NCBI GenBank assembly: GCA_018057705.1
Contig: JAGPDF010000048.1
Span: forward strand, 1 to 35,372
DNA length: 35,372 nucleotides
Origin: Thermoanaerobaculia bacterium
GTDB lineage: Bacteria > Acidobacteriota > Thermoanaerobaculia > Multivoradales > JAGPDF01
Reading direction: 5' to 3'
This document shows positions 8,930 through 14,815 of this stretch, in pieces. Position 1 is the stretch's first letter, and the number at the start of each line of letters is the position of its first letter. A program made the position numbers and the translations under genes. Under the pieces are notes generated by a model that worked only from the letters and a program-made list of their open reading frames with translations, ran no database searches and was not told the DNA's origin.

Positions 8930-9012
8930 CGCCTGCGCCGCTGGTCCGCCTCCAATCGGCGGCGGAACCGGCGCCTCCGTCACCGAACTGAGGGAAGCTC
9001 GACCCTTCCTGA

Positions 9013-9052
9013 CCGCTGTATGACGCCCGTCATGCAGCGGTTTTTGCTTTTC
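9013..9052 (+). terminator. Strong rho-independent terminator (12-bp stem, T-run)
   Basis: CCGCTGTATGAC (9013-9024), loop GCCC, then GTCATGCAGCGG (9029-9040) pair over 12 positions with a single wobble, followed by TTTTTGCTTTT. It lies 83 nt after the thiol-transferase gene and ends transcription before the heme-copper operon. The inner part is also an inverted repeat, ATGAC-N4-GTCAT, with the spacing of FNR/DNR-type sites. Confidence 0.85.
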
Positions 9053-9104: not shown

Positions 9105-9266
9105 ATGAACGAACCGGGCAACACCACCGAGGCGATTCCGCTCGGACAGCGTCTGTTCGATCGGCCGTTTCTGCTGCTCGCCGCCGGACTGATCGTGATG
9201 TTCCTCTTCTATACCGGATGGGGGCTCTGGGAGATTCTCAGCCTGCCCGCCGGAAAGCTACCGTAA
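9105..9266 (+). CDS. 53-aa single-helix membrane peptide, likely small subunit of the heme-copper complex
   Basis: This short gene has an excellent ribosome site (AAGGAGG, 5 nt before the ATG). It encodes a polar N-terminus, one transmembrane helix (about residues 21-43, PFLLLAAGLIVMFLFYTGW) and a short tail ending GKLP. Its stop overlaps the AAGGAGG of the CuA subunit gene 11 nt downstream, so the two are translated in series. Position and form match subunit IIa of Thermus ba3 oxidase, a one-helix peptide that supplies the helix missing from a short subunit II. Here subunit II has its own N-terminal helix, so the equivalence is inference. It is easy to miss in automatic annotation. Confidence 0.75.
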   Translation: MNEPGNTTEAIPLGQRLFDRPFLLLAAGLIVMFLFYTGWGLWEILSLPAGKLP

Positions 9267-9277
9267 GGAGGCCTGCC

Positions 9278-9901
9278 ATGGAATTCCATTCCGGCGTCGT
9301 CCCGCCGCAGGGCGTCTGGTGGCGCCCCGCAGGCAAGCAGGAAAAGCTCTGGGTCGCGATCGCTTTCGCCTGGTGCATGGTGCTCTTCGCCATGATGCCC
9401 TTCTGGCACATCAAGGGCGGTCAGAACCCCTCCGGCATTCGCAGCCGCGTGACGCCCGAAGACTTTCTGGCGCGCGTCTTCACCTTCGTCGAGGACTACA
9501 AAGTCAGCGAAGAGAATGGCATCCCGCTGGTCGCCCCGCCGCCGGGTAGCGACGTCTACCTGCTCGGCCAGATGTGGCGCTGGTATCCGGCGCTCGAGCT
9601 CGAGGAGGGCGTGAGCTACACCCTCCACCTCTCCTCGATCGACATCAACCACGGATTCAGCCTCTACCCGGCCAACATCAATTTCCAGGTCATGCCGGGC
9701 TACGACTACGGCCTGGTCATCAAACCCAACAAGCCCGGCGAGTACCGCATCGTCTGCAACGAGTTCTGCGGCGTCAACCATCACAACATGCTCGGCCGCA
9801 TCGTGGTCCGGCCGGCGAAACAGGTGGCGCAGGCAACCTCGCAGGGGACCCCGCAGACCCTGCAGATGACCCCGATACCGGCCCAGGAGACGACGCGATG
9901 A
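9278..9901 (+). CDS. Heme-copper reductase subunit II with complete CuA site
   Basis: The product is 207 aa; the ATG at 9278 sits behind the AAGGAGG overlapping the previous stop. One N-terminal transmembrane helix (about residues 24-42) is followed by a periplasmic cupredoxin domain. The binuclear CuA ligands are intact: H125 (DINHGF), then CNEFCGVNHHNM giving C160, E162 (backbone), C164, H168 and M171. It therefore accepts electrons from a periplasmic donor such as cytochrome c or a cupredoxin and passes them to the heme of subunit I. No cytochrome c domain is fused and no CXXCH is present. The last about 25 residues are a Gln/Thr/Pro-rich tail. Its stop overlaps the subunit I start (ATGA). 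Confidence 0.92.
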   Translation: MEFHSGVVPPQGVWWRPAGKQEKLWVAIAFAWCMVLFAMMPFWHIKGGQNPSGIRSRVTPEDFLARVFTFVEDYKVSEENGIPLVAPPPGSDVYLLGQMWRWYPALELEEGVSYTLHLSSIDINHGFSLYPANINFQVMPGYDYGLVIKPNKPGEYRIVCNEFCGVNHHNMLGRIVVRPAKQVAQATSQGTPQTLQMTPIPAQETTR

Positions 9902-11667
9902 GCACCATGGCCACCACTCCCGCCGCTGCCGGTTCCTCGAATCCCGACTCGGCGCTCTGGCGCCTTGCATCGCGTCTGTGCCCGGTGACCGGCCTCCGGG
10001 TCAACCGCGACTCGGAGCTCCTGGTGCGCTGGAACGCGGTCGTCGGGATCGTCTTCCTGCTGGTCGGCGTGGTCGCGGCGCTGCTCCTGGCGCTCACCCG
10101 CTGGCAAGCGGTGCAGCTCCTGGCGCCGACCTGGTTCTACCGCATCCTCACCCTGCACGGCCTCAACATGCTGATCTTCTTCATCATCTTCTTCGAGATG
10201 GCGATCCTCTACTTCGCCGGACCGATCGTCCTCGGATGCCGGCAACCGGCGCCCAAGCTCGCCTGGGCCGGGTTCAGTCTCATGCTCATCGGCGCTCTGC
10301 TGGTCGACGTCGTCGTGCTCATGGGCCGGGCGGACGTACTCTTCACCTCCTACGTGCCGCTCAAGGCGCATCCGCTCTACTACCTGGGCATCATCCTCTT
10401 CGCGGTCGGAGCGCTCATCGCCACCCTCCTCTTCTTCGCCGCGCTGGTCGTGGCGAAACGCGAGAAGAGCTACACCGGATCGATGCCGCTGGTCTCCTTC
10501 GGCGCGCTCACCGCGGCGATCATCGCGGTGATCACGCTGCTCCACGGCGCGGCGATCTACATCCCGACCTTCCTCTGGTCGATGGGGTACATGAACGTCG
10601 ACCCGGAGGTCTACCGCCTGATGTTCTGGGCCCTGGGACACGCCTCGCAGCAGATCAACGTCGCCGCGATGGTCTCGGTCTGGTACCTCATGGGCGGCCT
10701 GACGATCGGCGCCGTGGTGCTCAACGAGAAGGTGAGCCGCTGGGCGTTCGTCCTCTACGTGCTCTTCATCTCGATGGCCTCCGCCCACCACCTGCTGGTC
10801 GATCCCGGCTTCGGACCGGCGTGGAAGGTCTGGAACACCAGCTACGCCATGTACCTCGCGGTGCTTGCCTCGATGATCCACGGCTTCACGGTGCCGGCCG
10901 GCATGGAGACCGGCATGCGCTTGCGCGGCTTCGTCAAGGGCCGCTTCGAATGGCTGAAGAAGGCCCCCTGGTCGGACCCGGGATTCTCCGGGACCTTCCT
11001 CTCGCTGGTGATCTTCGGCTTCATGGGCGGCATCACTGGCGTCACCCAGGGGACCGAGCAGATCAACATCCTCGCGCACAACACGCTGCGTATCCCCGGC
11101 CACTTCCATGTCACCGTGGTCGGCGGCACGGCGCTCTCGTTCATGGCGCTCACCTACTACGTCATTCCCCTGATCTTCCGCCGCAAGGTGGCGTTCTGGG
11201 GCGCCGCCAAGTGGCAGCCGTACCTGTTCGCGATCGGCATCGTGATCCTCTCGATGTCGATGACCTTCGCCGGCAGCTTCGGCGTACCGCGCAGGAGCGC
11301 CGACATCTCGTTCGCCAAGGCGCCGTTCACGCTCGAGTTCCCGCCGATCGTCGACCTGCTGCTCGCCGGAATCGGCATCGGCGGCACGATCACCTCGATC
11401 GCTGTGCTGCTGTTCATCGCGATCGCCGTGAAATCGGTCTTCTTCGGCGAGAAGCTCGACTTCGCGGCGATGCAGCCGGGGATGCCGGGCGTGCCGCAGG
11501 GCGTGGTGAAGCTGCCTGCCCAGACCCATTCCGGCGAGAACGCCGAAGCGGTCCACAAGAGCGGCGCTCCGGGCACGATCGTTCTGGTTTTCGTCTTCCT
11601 GGCGGTCTTCATCCTCTACTACTTCGCCAACTGGAAGGTCCTGTCGATGATCTGGAAGATCGGCTGA
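9898..11667 (+). CDS. Heme-copper superfamily subunit I, B-family-like, lacking the active-site Tyr (candidate NO reductase)
   Basis: The product is 589 aa with 12 or more hydrophobic helices; it starts at the ATGA overlap. All six metal-binding His are present: H87 (LTLHGLN, low-spin heme), H248 (LGHASQQ, CuB or FeB), H297/H298 (AHHLLVDPG) and H402/H404 (PGHFHV). The AHHLLVDPGFGPAWK and HNTLRIPGHFH segments resemble Thermus ba3 (B family). The hallmark Tyr four residues after the CuB His (GHPxVY) is Gln252 in GHASQQIN. The cbb3-type alternative (six residues before the HH pair) is Ile291. Oxygen reductases need that cross-linked Tyr; B-derived NO reductases with CuA partners lack it. I infer NO reduction or another non-oxygen activity. 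Automatic tools will probably call it cytochrome c oxidase subunit I. Confidence 0.9.
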   Translation: MSTMATTPAAAGSSNPDSALWRLASRLCPVTGLRVNRDSELLVRWNAVVGIVFLLVGVVAALLLALTRWQAVQLLAPTWFYRILTLHGLNMLIFFIIFFEMAILYFAGPIVLGCRQPAPKLAWAGFSLMLIGALLVDVVVLMGRADVLFTSYVPLKAHPLYYLGIILFAVGALIATLLFFAALVVAKREKSYTGSMPLVSFGALTAAIIAVITLLHGAAIYIPTFLWSMGYMNVDPEVYRLMFWALGHASQQINVAAMVSVWYLMGGLTIGAVVLNEKVSRWAFVLYVLFISMASAHHLLVDPGFGPAWKVWNTSYAMYLAVLASMIHGFTVPAGMETGMRLRGFVKGRFEWLKKAPWSDPGFSGTFLSLVIFGFMGGITGVTQGTEQINILAHNTLRIPGHFHVTVVGGTALSFMALTYYVIPLIFRRKVAFWGAAKWQPYLFAIGIVILSMSMTFAGSFGVPRRSADISFAKAPFTLEFPPIVDLLLAGIGIGGTITSIAVLLFIAIAVKSVFFGEKLDFAAMQPGMPGVPQGVVKLPAQTHSGENAEAVHKSGAPGTIVLVFVFLAVFILYYFANWKVLSMIWKIG

Positions 11668-11680
11668 CCGGATCGCCTCC

Positions 11681-12607
11681 ATGAGCACCCTGCCCGATCC
11701 AGCGCTTCCCCCGCATCGCTTCGCCGTCGGAGCCCTCTTCCTCTGGCTCGTGGTCACGGTCGGCTGGTGGGTCCTCGCGTTTGCGCCCCTGCCGGTACCG
11801 GCGGAGTGGCTGGATCAGGCAAGGGCGGTCTGTTTCGGCTCGTCGCCGTCCGGACTGCCGGACAATTACGGCTGGGTGCTCCTGGTTCTCGGACCGCTTT
11901 CGATGCTCGGTTTTCTGGTCGCCGTCTGGGGATCCGAGCTGCGCAGCGCTCTGCAGCGGGCGGCGCGCCGCTCGTGGGGCGTGGCGCTCATCGTCTGGAT
12001 CGCGGCCGGCCTCGTGGGCGGCAGCCTCTGGGTCGCCCGGCGCGTCGACGGCGCACGCCGCGCCGCCGCGGCCTATGCTCCCCTCGCCGAAGAAGAACGC
12101 CTCCCCGACGCCTATCCGCGGACCTTCGATCCCGCGCCGGCCCTGGGTCTCGTGGACCAGAACGGCGCGACTCTCGGGCTCCCCGAGCTCGCCGGCAAGA
12201 CCGTTCTCGTCTCTTTCGCTTTCGCGCACTGCGTCACGGTCTGCCCGGTGCTCATCGGTACTCTCCACGCTGCCATCGAGGGCCTGCCGCCGTCCGAGAC
12301 CGCGGTCGTCGTCATCACCCTCGACCCCTGGCGCGACACGCCCGCCAATCTTCCCGCTATCGCCAAGGCCTGGCGGCTCGAGCGCATCGCCGACGCCCGG
12401 GTGCTCTCCGGCGAGGTCGAGCAGGTGAACGCCGTGCTTGCGGAGTGGGGCGCGGGTGGCAATCGCGACGAAGCCACCGGGGAGATCAGCCACCCCGGGC
12501 TGATCTTCGTTGTCGACGCGCAGTCCCGCATCGCCTTCCGCTTCCTCAATCCACCGCGCGGCTGGCTGATCGATGCCGTCGCCCGCCTGCACCGCGAGGG
12601 CCGATGA
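11681..12607 (+). CDS. SCO1/SenC-type copper chaperone with a multi-helix membrane N-terminus
   Basis: The product is 308 aa. The C-terminal half is a thioredoxin-fold SCO domain with the copper ligands C184 and C188 (AHCVTVCP) and H271 (ISHPGLIF). SCO proteins deliver copper to, or reduce, the CuA cysteines of subunit II, which fits the upstream gene. The N-terminal about 130 residues are unusual for SCO: hydrophobic segments near residues 15-35, 65-85 and 100-120, with a loop CFGSSPSGLPDNYGW between the first two. Ordinary SCO proteins have one anchor helix. It starts 13 nt after subunit I and overlaps the next gene (ATGA), so it belongs to the operon. The catalytic domain is certain; the role of the extra membrane part is unknown. 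Confidence 0.88.
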   Translation: MSTLPDPALPPHRFAVGALFLWLVVTVGWWVLAFAPLPVPAEWLDQARAVCFGSSPSGLPDNYGWVLLVLGPLSMLGFLVAVWGSELRSALQRAARRSWGVALIVWIAAGLVGGSLWVARRVDGARRAAAAYAPLAEEERLPDAYPRTFDPAPALGLVDQNGATLGLPELAGKTVLVSFAFAHCVTVCPVLIGTLHAAIEGLPPSETAVVVITLDPWRDTPANLPAIAKAWRLERIADARVLSGEVEQVNAVLAEWGAGGNRDEATGEISHPGLIFVVDAQSRIAFRFLNPPRGWLIDAVARLHREGR

Positions 12608-14286
12608 GCTCGACTTCCCCTGTTTCCCGGCAGGACCCGCAGCTCGACGTCGGCTCGGCCGGTCCGCCGGCGGCGGTCCGCTTCCTGCGCTTCTGGACCG
12701 ATCCGGTCGAGCGCCTCCTCGACCGGATCTACGGTTCGAAGTGGAACCCGTTCTACCAGAGCGGCAACCTGGCCGTCCTCTTCTTCCTGGTCTCGCTCGC
12801 CTCCGGCCTGGTGCTCTTCCTCTGGTACCACATTGCCGATCCGTACGGCTCGGTGCGGGAGATTCACCAGGGCCTCCCGGGAGGGGCCTGGCTGCGCTCC
12901 CTCCACCGCTACAGCGCCGATCTCGCGGTGGTGGCGATCGTCGCGCACCTGGTACGCAAACTCCTCCAGGGGCACACCTGGGGACCACGGGCGCTCGCGT
13001 GGATCTCGGGCGTCGTCCTGCTTCTCGTCACCCTGTTCTGCGGCTGGACCGGCCTGGTCATGGTCTGGGACGTCCAGGGTCAGGGGATCGCCATCACCGG
13101 CGCCCGCCTGCTCGATCTCCTGCCGATCTTCTCGGAGCCGATCAGCCGCGCGTTCAGCGGCGACGTGCCGCCGGCCTCCTCGTTCTTCTTCATGACGCTC
13201 TTCCTGCACGTCGCCCTGCCGCTCGGGCTCGGCGCCCTGCTCTGGCTGCACGTCTCGCGGGTGTCGCGGCCGGCGCTCCTGCCGCCGCGCCCGATGATCC
13301 GCTTCCTGCTCGTCGTGATCGCCCTCGCGGCGCTCCTTGCGCCCCTGGAGCTCCCGCCGGCAGCCGACCTGCTGGCGCTGCCGGGGGTCGTTCCCACCGA
13401 TCTCCTCTACGCCTTCTGGCTGCCGCTCGCGCAGCGGCTCCCGGCCGGCGCCCAGGCGGCGCTCTGGGGCGGACTTCTTGTCCTGCTCTGCGCCGCACCC
13501 TGGTGGTGGCGGCCACGGCGCGCGATCTCGGTCTCGTCGGTCGACGAAAGCCACTGCACCGGCTGCACGCACTGCTACCAGGACTGCCCTTACGAGGCGA
13601 TCGCCATGGTGCCGCGGACGGTCCTCTCCCAGACCTCGCTGCTGGTCGCCCGGGTGGATCCCGACCGCTGCGTCGGGTGCGGGATCTGCGCCGCTTCCTG
13701 TCCGCCGATGGGTGTCGGACCCCAGAATCGCGACGGCCGCGACCAGCTCGCCGCCGCCCGTGCCTACCTCGACCTACGCCAACCGTACGGCCCGACCGGG
13801 CGCGAAGTGGTCCTCATCGCCTGCCGGAACGGCGCGGCCGCGCACCCGGAGACGCTGGCCCTTCCGGGCGTCGAGCTCTACCCGACCGGCTGCTCGGGCT
13901 CGGTCCACACGTCGGTCCTCGAACTGCTGATCCGCCGCGGCGTGGGAGGCGTTTTCATACTCTCCTGCCCGCCGCGCAACTGCTATTTCCGCGAGGGTCC
14001 GAAGTGGCTCGAAGCGCGCCTGGAGAACGGCCGCGACGCCGCCCTGCACCCCCGCGTCGACCGCCGGCGGGTGGCGTTCGCCAGCTTCTCGGCAACCGAG
14101 AGCGCCGCGATCTGCGCCGCGCTCGTCGCTTTTCAGGGCACGATCTCCGCGCTCGCGACGACCGCGGAAGCGGAGCCCGACCTCGAGGTCGTCTGCCTGC
14201 CACCTCTGGATCCGAACGCCCCCCCGACCCCGGCGCCCCCGGGCAACTCGAAGCGGTCAGCGCTGGTGGAGGTGACCGATGTCTGA
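12604..14286 (+). CDS. Cytochrome b - 2[4Fe-4S] ferredoxin - MvhD/FlpD-like domain fusion
   Basis: This 560-aa protein has three parts. Residues about 25-225 are a four-helix cytochrome b N-terminal domain with two His pairs spaced as in bc1/b6 proteins, H101-x13-H115 and H202-x13-H216, to bind two b hemes. Further helices lie at about 240-300. Residues about 310-370 form an 8Fe ferredoxin: C318, C321, C324, C328 and C356, C359, C362, C366. Residues about 400-500 resemble MvhD/FlpD, the [2Fe-2S] subunit linking hydrogenase or formate dehydrogenase to heterodisulfide reductase, with C407, C430 (PTGCSGSV), C455 and C460 (SCPPRNCYF). The tail is proline-rich. It starts at an ATGA overlap with the SCO gene. 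The Fe-S parts probably face the cytoplasm, so the protein could connect a soluble donor to membrane hemes or quinone; direction and partner are inferred. Confidence 0.88.
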   Translation: MSSTSPVSRQDPQLDVGSAGPPAAVRFLRFWTDPVERLLDRIYGSKWNPFYQSGNLAVLFFLVSLASGLVLFLWYHIADPYGSVREIHQGLPGGAWLRSLHRYSADLAVVAIVAHLVRKLLQGHTWGPRALAWISGVVLLLVTLFCGWTGLVMVWDVQGQGIAITGARLLDLLPIFSEPISRAFSGDVPPASSFFFMTLFLHVALPLGLGALLWLHVSRVSRPALLPPRPMIRFLLVVIALAALLAPLELPPAADLLALPGVVPTDLLYAFWLPLAQRLPAGAQAALWGGLLVLLCAAPWWWRPRRAISVSSVDESHCTGCTHCYQDCPYEAIAMVPRTVLSQTSLLVARVDPDRCVGCGICAASCPPMGVGPQNRDGRDQLAAARAYLDLRQPYGPTGREVVLIACRNGAAAHPETLALPGVELYPTGCSGSVHTSVLELLIRRGVGGVFILSCPPRNCYFREGPKWLEARLENGRDAALHPRVDRRRVAFASFSATESAAICAALVAFQGTISALATTAEAEPDLEVVCLPPLDPNAPPTPAPPGNSKRSALVEVTDV

Positions 14287-14815
14287 CCTGCGCGTCGCCA
14301 GCCTGCTGCGCCTCGGCCTGCAGGTCGCGGTGGCGCTCGGCCTGCTGCTCGGCGTGCAGGCACTGGCGCACCTGCCGCTCGGCGCGCCGCCCGAAGGGGC
14401 GGCCATCCGTCTCGCCGTTCGGACTTCGGCGGGCAAGCTCGAGATCTGTCGCGACGTCCCCGCCGAGGAGCTCGCGCAGTTGCCCATCCACATGCGCCAG
14501 TCGCGCATCTGCGAAGTGCAGCCGGTGGCGTATCGGCTCACGCTCAGCGTGGACGGCATGCCCTTGCGTGCCATCCATGCCGAACGCCGCGGCATGCGCA
14601 GTGACCGCGCCCTGGTCATCGACGATCTCGTGCCGGTCGCCGCCGGACGGCGGGCCCTGGTCGTCGCGCTCGAGCCGGAAGTGCCACCGGGCACGCCGGA
14701 GGCCGGCGCCGCGGTGCTGCCGCGCGGCGAGCTGCGGCAGACGATCGAGCTGCTGCCAGGGCGCATCGCTCTCGTGACCTGGGAGGCGAGCATAGGCCTC
14801 GCTGTCCGGCAGTAG
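14279..14815 (+). CDS. Unknown membrane-anchored protein at the end of the heme-copper operon
   Basis: This 178-aa protein overlaps the fusion gene by 8 nt, so it is translationally coupled to the operon. An N-terminal hydrophobic helix (about residues 10-32, LGLQVAVALGLLLGVQALA) anchors or exports it. The rest looks like a periplasmic beta-rich domain with two cysteines about 20 residues apart (KLEICRDVPAEEL and SRICEVQPVAYRL). I do not recognise the family. The position suggests an assembly factor or accessory subunit, and the two Cys could bind copper or form a disulfide. A function cannot be given. Confidence 0.8.
   Translation: MSDLRVASLLRLGLQVAVALGLLLGVQALAHLPLGAPPEGAAIRLAVRTSAGKLEICRDVPAEELAQLPIHMRQSRICEVQPVAYRLTLSVDGMPLRAIHAERRGMRSDRALVIDDLVPVAAGRRALVVALEPEVPPGTPEAGAAVLPRGELRQTIELLPGRIALVTWEASIGLAVRQ

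What the first reader, a model, noticed from the sequence alone, without database searches (positions are those of the whole stretch)
9105..14815. Six-gene respiratory module that may form an undescribed complex
Gaps are 13 nt or less and three junctions are ATGA or 8-nt overlaps, so the small peptide, CuA subunit, Tyr-less subunit I, membrane-SCO, cytochrome b/Fe-S fusion and unknown anchored protein are made together. No subunit III, no cytochrome c and no heme-A synthesis genes are included. The set combines CuA (periplasmic electron entry) and Fe-S/cytochrome b (cytoplasmic or quinone entry), which suggests two input routes to one terminal reductase.
Basis: partly seen in the sequence, partly recalled or inferred. 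Interest (0 to 1): 0.75.

Follow-up and report, generated by a model that had tools for sequence, protein, structure and literature searches.

The report
NO-reductase operon with cytochrome b/ferredoxin partner
This is a six-gene bacterial operon for a poorly studied type of nitric oxide reductase (eNOR) that travels, across several phyla, with an unexplained membrane protein joining a bc1-like cytochrome b to iron-sulfur domains, and that seems to be controlled together with the genes that remove the greenhouse gas N2O.

Summary
The six genes, their order and their tight junctions are confirmed. The core is a known kind: subunit I carries the active-site Gln that a published study uses to define eNOR, a nitric oxide reductase family. 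It comes with an intact CuA subunit II, a one-helix small subunit and a SCO/SenC copper chaperone. What I could not find described is the second half: a Rieske-less, bc1-like cytochrome b fused to two [4Fe-4S] sites and an FlpD/MvhD domain, plus a membrane-anchored beta-sandwich protein. These belong to the module. In 249 Gemmatimonadota genomes, 57 of 60 with the reductase have the fusion, against 4 of 189 without it (p about 2e-47). All 7 Acidobacteriota genomes with the reductase have it too, against 3 of 290 others. In at least 12 loci the fusion and the anchored protein form one polypeptide. A palindrome, ATGAYNNNNRTCAT, lies upstream of the operon, of the host's own nosZ operon and, in relatives, of nirK or a lone fusion gene. 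NO reduction is therefore well supported. The 'two electron inputs' idea is plausible but unproven; a role in copper-centre or haem assembly is the main rival. Verdict: new variant of a known kind.

The parts
9020..9033 (.). Palindrome ATGACGCCCGTCAT (ATGAYNNNNRTCAT), proposed operator, 71 nt before the first gene; lies inside a 14-pair hairpin 9011-9042 followed by T-rich DNA that may also terminate the upstream gene
   Evidence: only match in the window, expected 0.00; in 12 of 88 upstream regions, shuffle mean 0.1, maximum 1; hairpin
9105..9266 (+). small one-helix protein (53 aa), resembles the small CbaC/subunit IIa-type peptide of ba3/CuA-NOR clusters in size and position
   Evidence: ORF and ribosome-binding site; hydrophobic segment 23-41; homologue found in 77 of 80 named loci
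9278..9901 (+). subunit II, CuA cupredoxin with one N-terminal helix
   Evidence: COX2 domain; CuA ligands H125, C160, E162, C164, H168, M171 conserved in an alignment of 89
9898..11667 (+). subunit I, heme-copper NO reductase of eNOR type (Gln at the Tyr position)
   Evidence: PF00115; H87, H248, H297, H298, H402, H404 in all of 88; Q252; nearest solved structures are ba3 oxidases
11681..12607 (+). SCO/SenC copper chaperone with three N-terminal hydrophobic segments and an extra conserved Cys51
   Evidence: PF02630; C184, C188 and H271 in 81 of 81, C51 in 80 of 81; hydropathy
12604..14286 (+). fusion: bc1/b6-like cytochrome b (two bis-His haem sites, Qo-type Asp266) + two 4Fe-4S sites + FlpD/MvhD domain
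   Evidence: Pfam; H101, H115, H202, H216 and 12 Cys in 83 or 84 of 84; AlphaFold2 pLDDT 90, pTM 0.88; cytochrome b match over residues about 44-307; PDB profile hits to cytochrome b6, HdrA, MvhD
14279..14815 (+). membrane-anchored protein, one N-terminal helix and a periplasmic beta-sandwich with conserved C57, H71, M72, C78
   Evidence: conservation in 65-68 of 68; AlphaFold2 pLDDT 94; fused to the C-terminus of the cytochrome b/Fe-S protein in at least 12 loci

Best explanation
The operon makes an eNOR-type nitric oxide reductase (NO to N2O) together with its own copper chaperone and its own membrane redox partner. Shown from sequence: subunit I keeps all haem and CuB histidines and has Gln in place of the oxidase Tyr; subunit II keeps CuA; the SCO protein keeps its copper-binding residues; the fusion has two bis-His haem b sites, two 4Fe-4S sites and four FlpD cysteines; the anchored protein acts with the fusion because the two are one polypeptide in other lineages. 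Inferred: SCO and the partner proteins serve the same enzyme; the fusion oxidises menaquinol at a Qo-like site and/or takes electrons from a cytoplasmic Fe-S or flavin donor through FlpD, moves them across the membrane through the two haems b, and the anchored domain helps pass them to CuA on the outside. In the host this feeds an NO to N2O to N2 chain with the clade II NosZ, under one Crp/Fnr-like operator.
For: Gln criterion for eNOR (PMC8756737) met in the window and in Defluviimonas, Thermus, Thermomicrobium and G515 relatives, while ba3 controls have Tyr. Co-occurrence 57 of 60 against 4 of 189 and 7 of 7 against 3 of 290. Of 80 named loci, 70 hold the fusion in the locus and 6 more elsewhere in the genome. 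Fused forms. NirK above the curated cut-off beside the module in G014 and G175, and high-scoring NirK in 7 of 80 named loci. NirK enriched with the reductase, 17 of 60 against 18 of 189, p 0.001. The host has NosZ in a nos operon headed by the same palindrome. The palindrome also precedes nirK in L050 and L052, crp in L032 and the unlinked fusion gene in G299. Structural match to cytochrome b over residues about 44-307, with the ef-loop acid D266 in 54 of 56. 19 of 26 module genomes, the host included, show no bc1-type PF00032 domain.
Against: No activity, expression or complex data. [quoted passage not shown] Relatives 45-47% identical (G515 whole genome; Thermus and Thermomicrobium plasmid records) lack the fusion, so eNOR chemistry does not need it. 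Most loci transcribe the fusion divergently. ctaA next to the fusion/anchored pair points towards assembly. The absence of bc1 has no module-negative control, and the host has alternative complex III genes (my reading of the ORFs).
Confidence: 0.52

Rival explanations
1. The fusion and the anchored protein are maturation factors: they bring cytoplasmic electrons across the membrane to reduce copper, or the thiols of SCO and CuA, or to serve haem A synthesis. They would work like CcoG, the Fe-S cupric reductase of cbb3 oxidases, and not as electron input for turnover.
For: SCO is the usual neighbour (score over 100 in 72 of 80 named loci). ctaA follows the anchored gene in many loci, including G421, which has fusion, anchored protein and ctaA but no reductase found. 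The anchored protein has conserved Cys/His/Met. CcoG, a membrane protein with ferredoxin-like motifs, is a reported cupric reductase for cbb3 assembly (PMC8267372, passages).
Against: Two conserved haems b and a Qo-type acid are more than a cupric reductase is known to need. The palindrome also heads nirK and nosZ operons, which need electrons. CuA enzymes with SCO are common without such a protein.
Confidence: 0.32
2. The heme-copper enzyme is mainly a high-affinity oxygen reductase, with NO reduction a side activity.
For: A related argument was made for the Nitrosomonas sNOR (PMC6967387, passages).
Against: The cross-link Tyr is replaced by Gln, and the eNOR family is reported as biochemically characterised for NO (PMC11388526). 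NirK, NosZ and regulator context.
Confidence: 0.1
3. The fusion is an independent enzyme that is only co-regulated with the reductase, for example a route from menaquinol to a cytoplasmic acceptor.
For: Divergent transcription in most loci; unlinked copies in six named genomes; a few genomes with the fusion and no reductase found.
Against: Near-strict co-occurrence. Of the four Gemmatimonadota exceptions, G542 holds a reductase piece at a contig end and G454 and G490 stop at the fusion, leaving G421.
Confidence: 0.12

Closest known systems
eNOR nitric oxide reductases (PMC8756737; Murali et al., cited as ref 22 in PMC11388526)
   Same: Gln at the active-site Tyr position, cupredoxin subunit II upstream, relation to B-family oxidases
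   Different: published descriptions seen here list subunits I and II only; this cluster adds SCO, the cytochrome b/Fe-S/FlpD fusion and the anchored protein
qCuANOR/bNOR cluster cbaC-cbaB-cbaA-senC-cbaD of Bacillus azotoformans (PMC3475470)
   Same: same order: small peptide, CuA subunit, subunit I, SenC, then one more membrane protein; accepts both menaquinol and cytochrome c
   Different: Asn instead of Gln; fifth gene is a 6-helix protein with no Fe-S domain reported
sNOR norSY-senC-orf1 of ammonia oxidisers (PMC4940428, PMC6967387)
   Same: CuA subunit, subunit I, SenC, one extra ORF
   Different: residue listed as Asn for sNOR; orf1 sequence could not be fetched, so whether it resembles the fusion is untested
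CcoG/RdxA cupric reductase (PMC8267372)
   Same: membrane protein with cytoplasmic 4Fe-4S motifs linked to an oxidase
   Different: the fusion has a two-haem cytochrome b and an FlpD domain
Cytochrome b of bc1/b6f
   Same: fold over residues about 44-307, four haem-ligand His, ef-loop acid
   Different: no PEWY sequence, no Rieske partner found in the cluster, ferredoxin/FlpD tail

Membership tests
eNOR | Gln in place of the cross-linking Tyr in subunit I (PMC8756737) | tested here: met
   Q252; same column at least 93% conserved in 88 relatives
eNOR | cupredoxin subunit II directly upstream | tested here: met
eNOR | groups with published eNOR sequences in a tree | not tested
   no named eNOR reference sequence could be fetched; Thermus and Chloroflexi members share the motif
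eNOR | NO reductase activity | not testable with these tools
   needs protein
sNOR | Asn at the Tyr position (PMC8756737 Table A4) | tested here: not met
   Gln
B-family (ba3) oxygen reductase | cross-linked Tyr in helix VI | tested here: not met
   three ba3-type relatives as controls have Tyr
CuA-containing subunit II | His, Cys, Glu, Cys, His, Met ligand set | tested here: met
SCO/SenC copper chaperone | CxxxC plus His | tested here: met
   C184, C188, H271 in 81 of 81
cytochrome bc1/b6f complex | cytochrome b with four haem-ligand His and an ef-loop acid | tested here: met
cytochrome bc1/b6f complex | Rieske protein and cytochrome c1/f in the same cluster | tested here: not met
   none in the window cluster; not recognised among the frequent neighbours of the surveyed loci, whose families were only partly identified
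CcoG-type cupric reductase | copper reductase activity | not testable with these tools
   needs protein

The most novel reading that the evidence does not exclude
A two-input NO reductase supercomplex: a Rieske-less bc1-like cytochrome b oxidises menaquinol on the outer face and hands one electron, by way of the anchored domain, straight to CuA of eNOR, while the haem b/4Fe-4S/FlpD wire exchanges the other electron with a cytoplasmic partner. NO reduction would then be coupled to a quinone-based branching of electrons without cytochrome c.
Probability: 0.17. Interest if true: 0.88.

Novelty: new variant of a known kind. Interest (0 to 1): 0.62.

Why it matters
Gene surveys misname eNOR and its kin as oxidases (noted in PMC8756737 for eNOR and in PMC11388526 for bNOR and sNOR), so NO and N2O turnover in soil phyla such as Acidobacteriota and Gemmatimonadota is easily miscounted. 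Here a dedicated redox or maturation partner of eNOR, and a palindrome shared with nos and nirK operons, give a ready gene-context test for true NO reducers. How eNOR receives its electrons, or its copper and haem, becomes a concrete, testable question.

Tried and rejected
Name sNOR: my first reading from order (CuA, subunit I, SenC), dropped when the active-site residue proved to be Gln, not Asn.

Deinococcus and Geobacillus plasmid homologues as sNOR references: both are Tyr-bearing oxidases.

FNR box TTGAN6TCAA: 4 one-mismatch hits in the window, no more than chance. Four of the ATGAYNNNNRTCAT matches listed are set aside as probable coding matches: three Gemmatimonadota ones (L098, L100, L109, repeating ATGATCGAGATCAT, read as coding in the small gene) and one in the host (L146, inside a predicted ActF-like gene). 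One search also lists further matches inside genes that I did not follow up.

Own-genome multicopper oxidase at C135 as NirK: only 45 bits to the NirK profile, and the curated NirK model misses the host.

Anchored protein fold: a beta-sandwich; best VIA Z 8.8 (rmsd 2.7, 91 aligned) to domains of unlike function, so no functional call.

A cross-phylum survey in Pseudomonadota, to reach ammonia oxidisers, was not possible with the handles on hand.

Tree of 94 subunit I sequences: the fusion-free members are long branches and unstable, so no order of gain was inferred.
Full report
WHAT IS THERE. Flanks are ordinary: MBOAT and AlgX-like genes and a DinB-like gene upstream, a DUF4388/TPR gene and a prolyl oligopeptidase downstream.

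THE REDUCTASE. Subunit I (PF00115) keeps every haem and CuB histidine in an alignment of 88. Where three ba3-type relatives have the cross-linking Tyr, it has Gln252 in the motif H-x-x-Q-Q-I/V-N. A published study uses exactly this Gln to define eNOR and includes Thermus and Chloroflexi members (PMC8756737, passages); the Thermus and Thermomicrobium homologues fetched here share it. sNOR is listed there with Asn, so the norSY-senC likeness that first suggested sNOR (PMC4940428, passages) is one of layout. eNOR is described as biochemically characterised (PMC11388526, passages). Subunit II has the whole CuA ligand set, and SCO its CxxxC and His. The small protein and the order match the Bacillus azotoformans cluster cbaC-B-A-senC-D, whose enzyme takes both menaquinol and cytochrome c (PMC3475470, passages).

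THE SECOND HALF. The 560-aa fusion holds a cytochrome b, two 4Fe-4S sites and an FlpD domain. Four haem-ligand His and all 12 Cys are kept in 83 or 84 of 84. The AlphaFold2 model (56 sequences; pLDDT 90, pTM 0.88) matches cytochrome b of bc1 complexes over residues about 44-307 (best VIA Z 24.3, rmsd 2.5, 254 aligned), so helices E and F are kept. Profile alignment puts D266 (Asp in 54 of 56) on the ef-loop acid of a bc-type cytochrome b. Helix count and charge put the Fe-S part in the cytoplasm. The 178-aa protein is one helix plus a beta-sandwich (pLDDT 94) with C57, H71, M72 and C78 conserved. In L034, L036 and ten named loci it is the C-terminal part of the fusion protein, after an extra helix, which places it outside and ties the two together. 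In one search, 12 of the 60 named loci that hold both have them in one ORF.

LINKAGE. Acidobacteriota: of 297 genomes, 16 matched subunit I at 1e-30; 7 of these are 52-100% identical and all 7 have the fusion, against 3 of the other 290 (Fisher 3e-12). The other nine matches are 28-33% identical; the three I examined are Tyr-type oxidases. Six of the 7 have the genes side by side; G200 has them at two contig ends. The three others hold a split form (cytochrome b/Fe-S and separate FlpD) in another setting. Gemmatimonadota: 249 genomes, 60 with subunit I (1e-90), 61 with the fusion (1e-20), 57 with both; 53 of 57 within 5 kb, all divergent. Exceptions: G431 and G488 end at the reductase; G515 (45-47% identical) truly lacks the fusion; G542 has a reductase piece at a contig end; G454 and G490 end at the fusion; G421 keeps fusion, anchored protein and heme A synthase without a reductase found. 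Named genomes (best 80 of 477 relatives): 70 of 80 have the fusion in the locus (17 downstream co-directional, 51 divergent, 1 convergent, 1 upstream), and 6 of the other 10 elsewhere in the genome. L073 is the same sequence as G285, so these sets overlap slightly.

FUNCTIONAL CONTEXT. After the module genes, the commonest neighbours that I could name in an unbiased comparison are NirK/cytochrome c-type genes, heme A synthase and NirV-like genes. NirK passes its curated cut-off in G014 and G175. In Gemmatimonadota, NirK goes with the reductase (17 of 60 against 18 of 189, p 0.001) and NosZ weakly (29 of 60 against 62 of 189, p 0.03). The host has no NirK hit but a full clade II NosZ (852 bits). 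Among 26 module genomes 8 have NirK and 12 have NosZ over the cut-off.

OPERATOR. ATGAYNNNNRTCAT occurs once in the window, 71 nt before the first gene (expected 0.00). It is in 12 of 88 upstream regions (shuffle mean 0.1, maximum 1). In the host it lies about 60 nt before a cytochrome c gene followed by nosZ (expected 0.01 in that 14-kb stretch). In relatives it precedes nirK (L050, L052), a FixK-like crp gene (L032) and, in G299, the fusion gene that sits apart from the reductase. One regulon for nitrite, NO and N2O reduction plus the fusion is the simplest reading. 76 of 88 upstream regions lack the exact motif, so it is not general.

HOW IT MAY WORK. Electron input and assembly both fit. 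For input: two haems b, a Qo-type acid, a wire ending in FlpD, and 19 of 26 module genomes without a bc1-type PF00032 domain (no module-negative control was run). For assembly: SCO and heme A synthase neighbours, and the CcoG precedent (PMC8267372, passages). I lean to input at about 5 to 3.

PRINT SEARCH. Six full-text searches and passages of thirteen papers showed no description of this fusion with eNOR. Murali et al. was not held and is known here only through citing papers. Statements on bc1 Qo residues, the MvhD cluster and alternative complex III genes are partly recalled.

Noticed in passing
window 9011-9042: The proposed operator sits inside a 14-pair hairpin followed by a T-rich tail, so the same DNA could end the upstream DinB-like gene and bind a regulator.
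   Followed up: partly
L164 6675-12761 (host contig C23): Host nos operon: cytochrome c, nosZ, then nosD-, nosF- and nosY-like ORFs (the last three named from reading the ORFs), headed by the same palindrome.
   Followed up: yes
window 11681-12607: The SCO protein has three N-terminal hydrophobic segments with a near-invariant Cys51 (80 of 81) in a CFGxxxxGxP-like motif, not usual for SCO as I recall.
   Followed up: no
L123 6215-13918: A Defluviimonas plasmid carries the whole module with heme O synthase inserted and a bacteriohemerythrin after it.
   Followed up: partly
L037, L038, L039: A split form of the fusion (cytochrome b/Fe-S protein plus separate FlpD) lies beside a bc-type cytochrome b in three genomes of one Acidobacteriota family; function unknown.
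   Followed up: partly
L034 4966-6348: A 461-aa ORF weakly like subunit I (23%) directly before the module in G198, with the palindrome about 60 nt before it; no Pfam or NCBIfam hit.
   Followed up: no
L148 7858-9506: G421 has fusion, anchored protein and heme A synthase in a row but no reductase found, possibly a relic or a separate use.
   Followed up: partly
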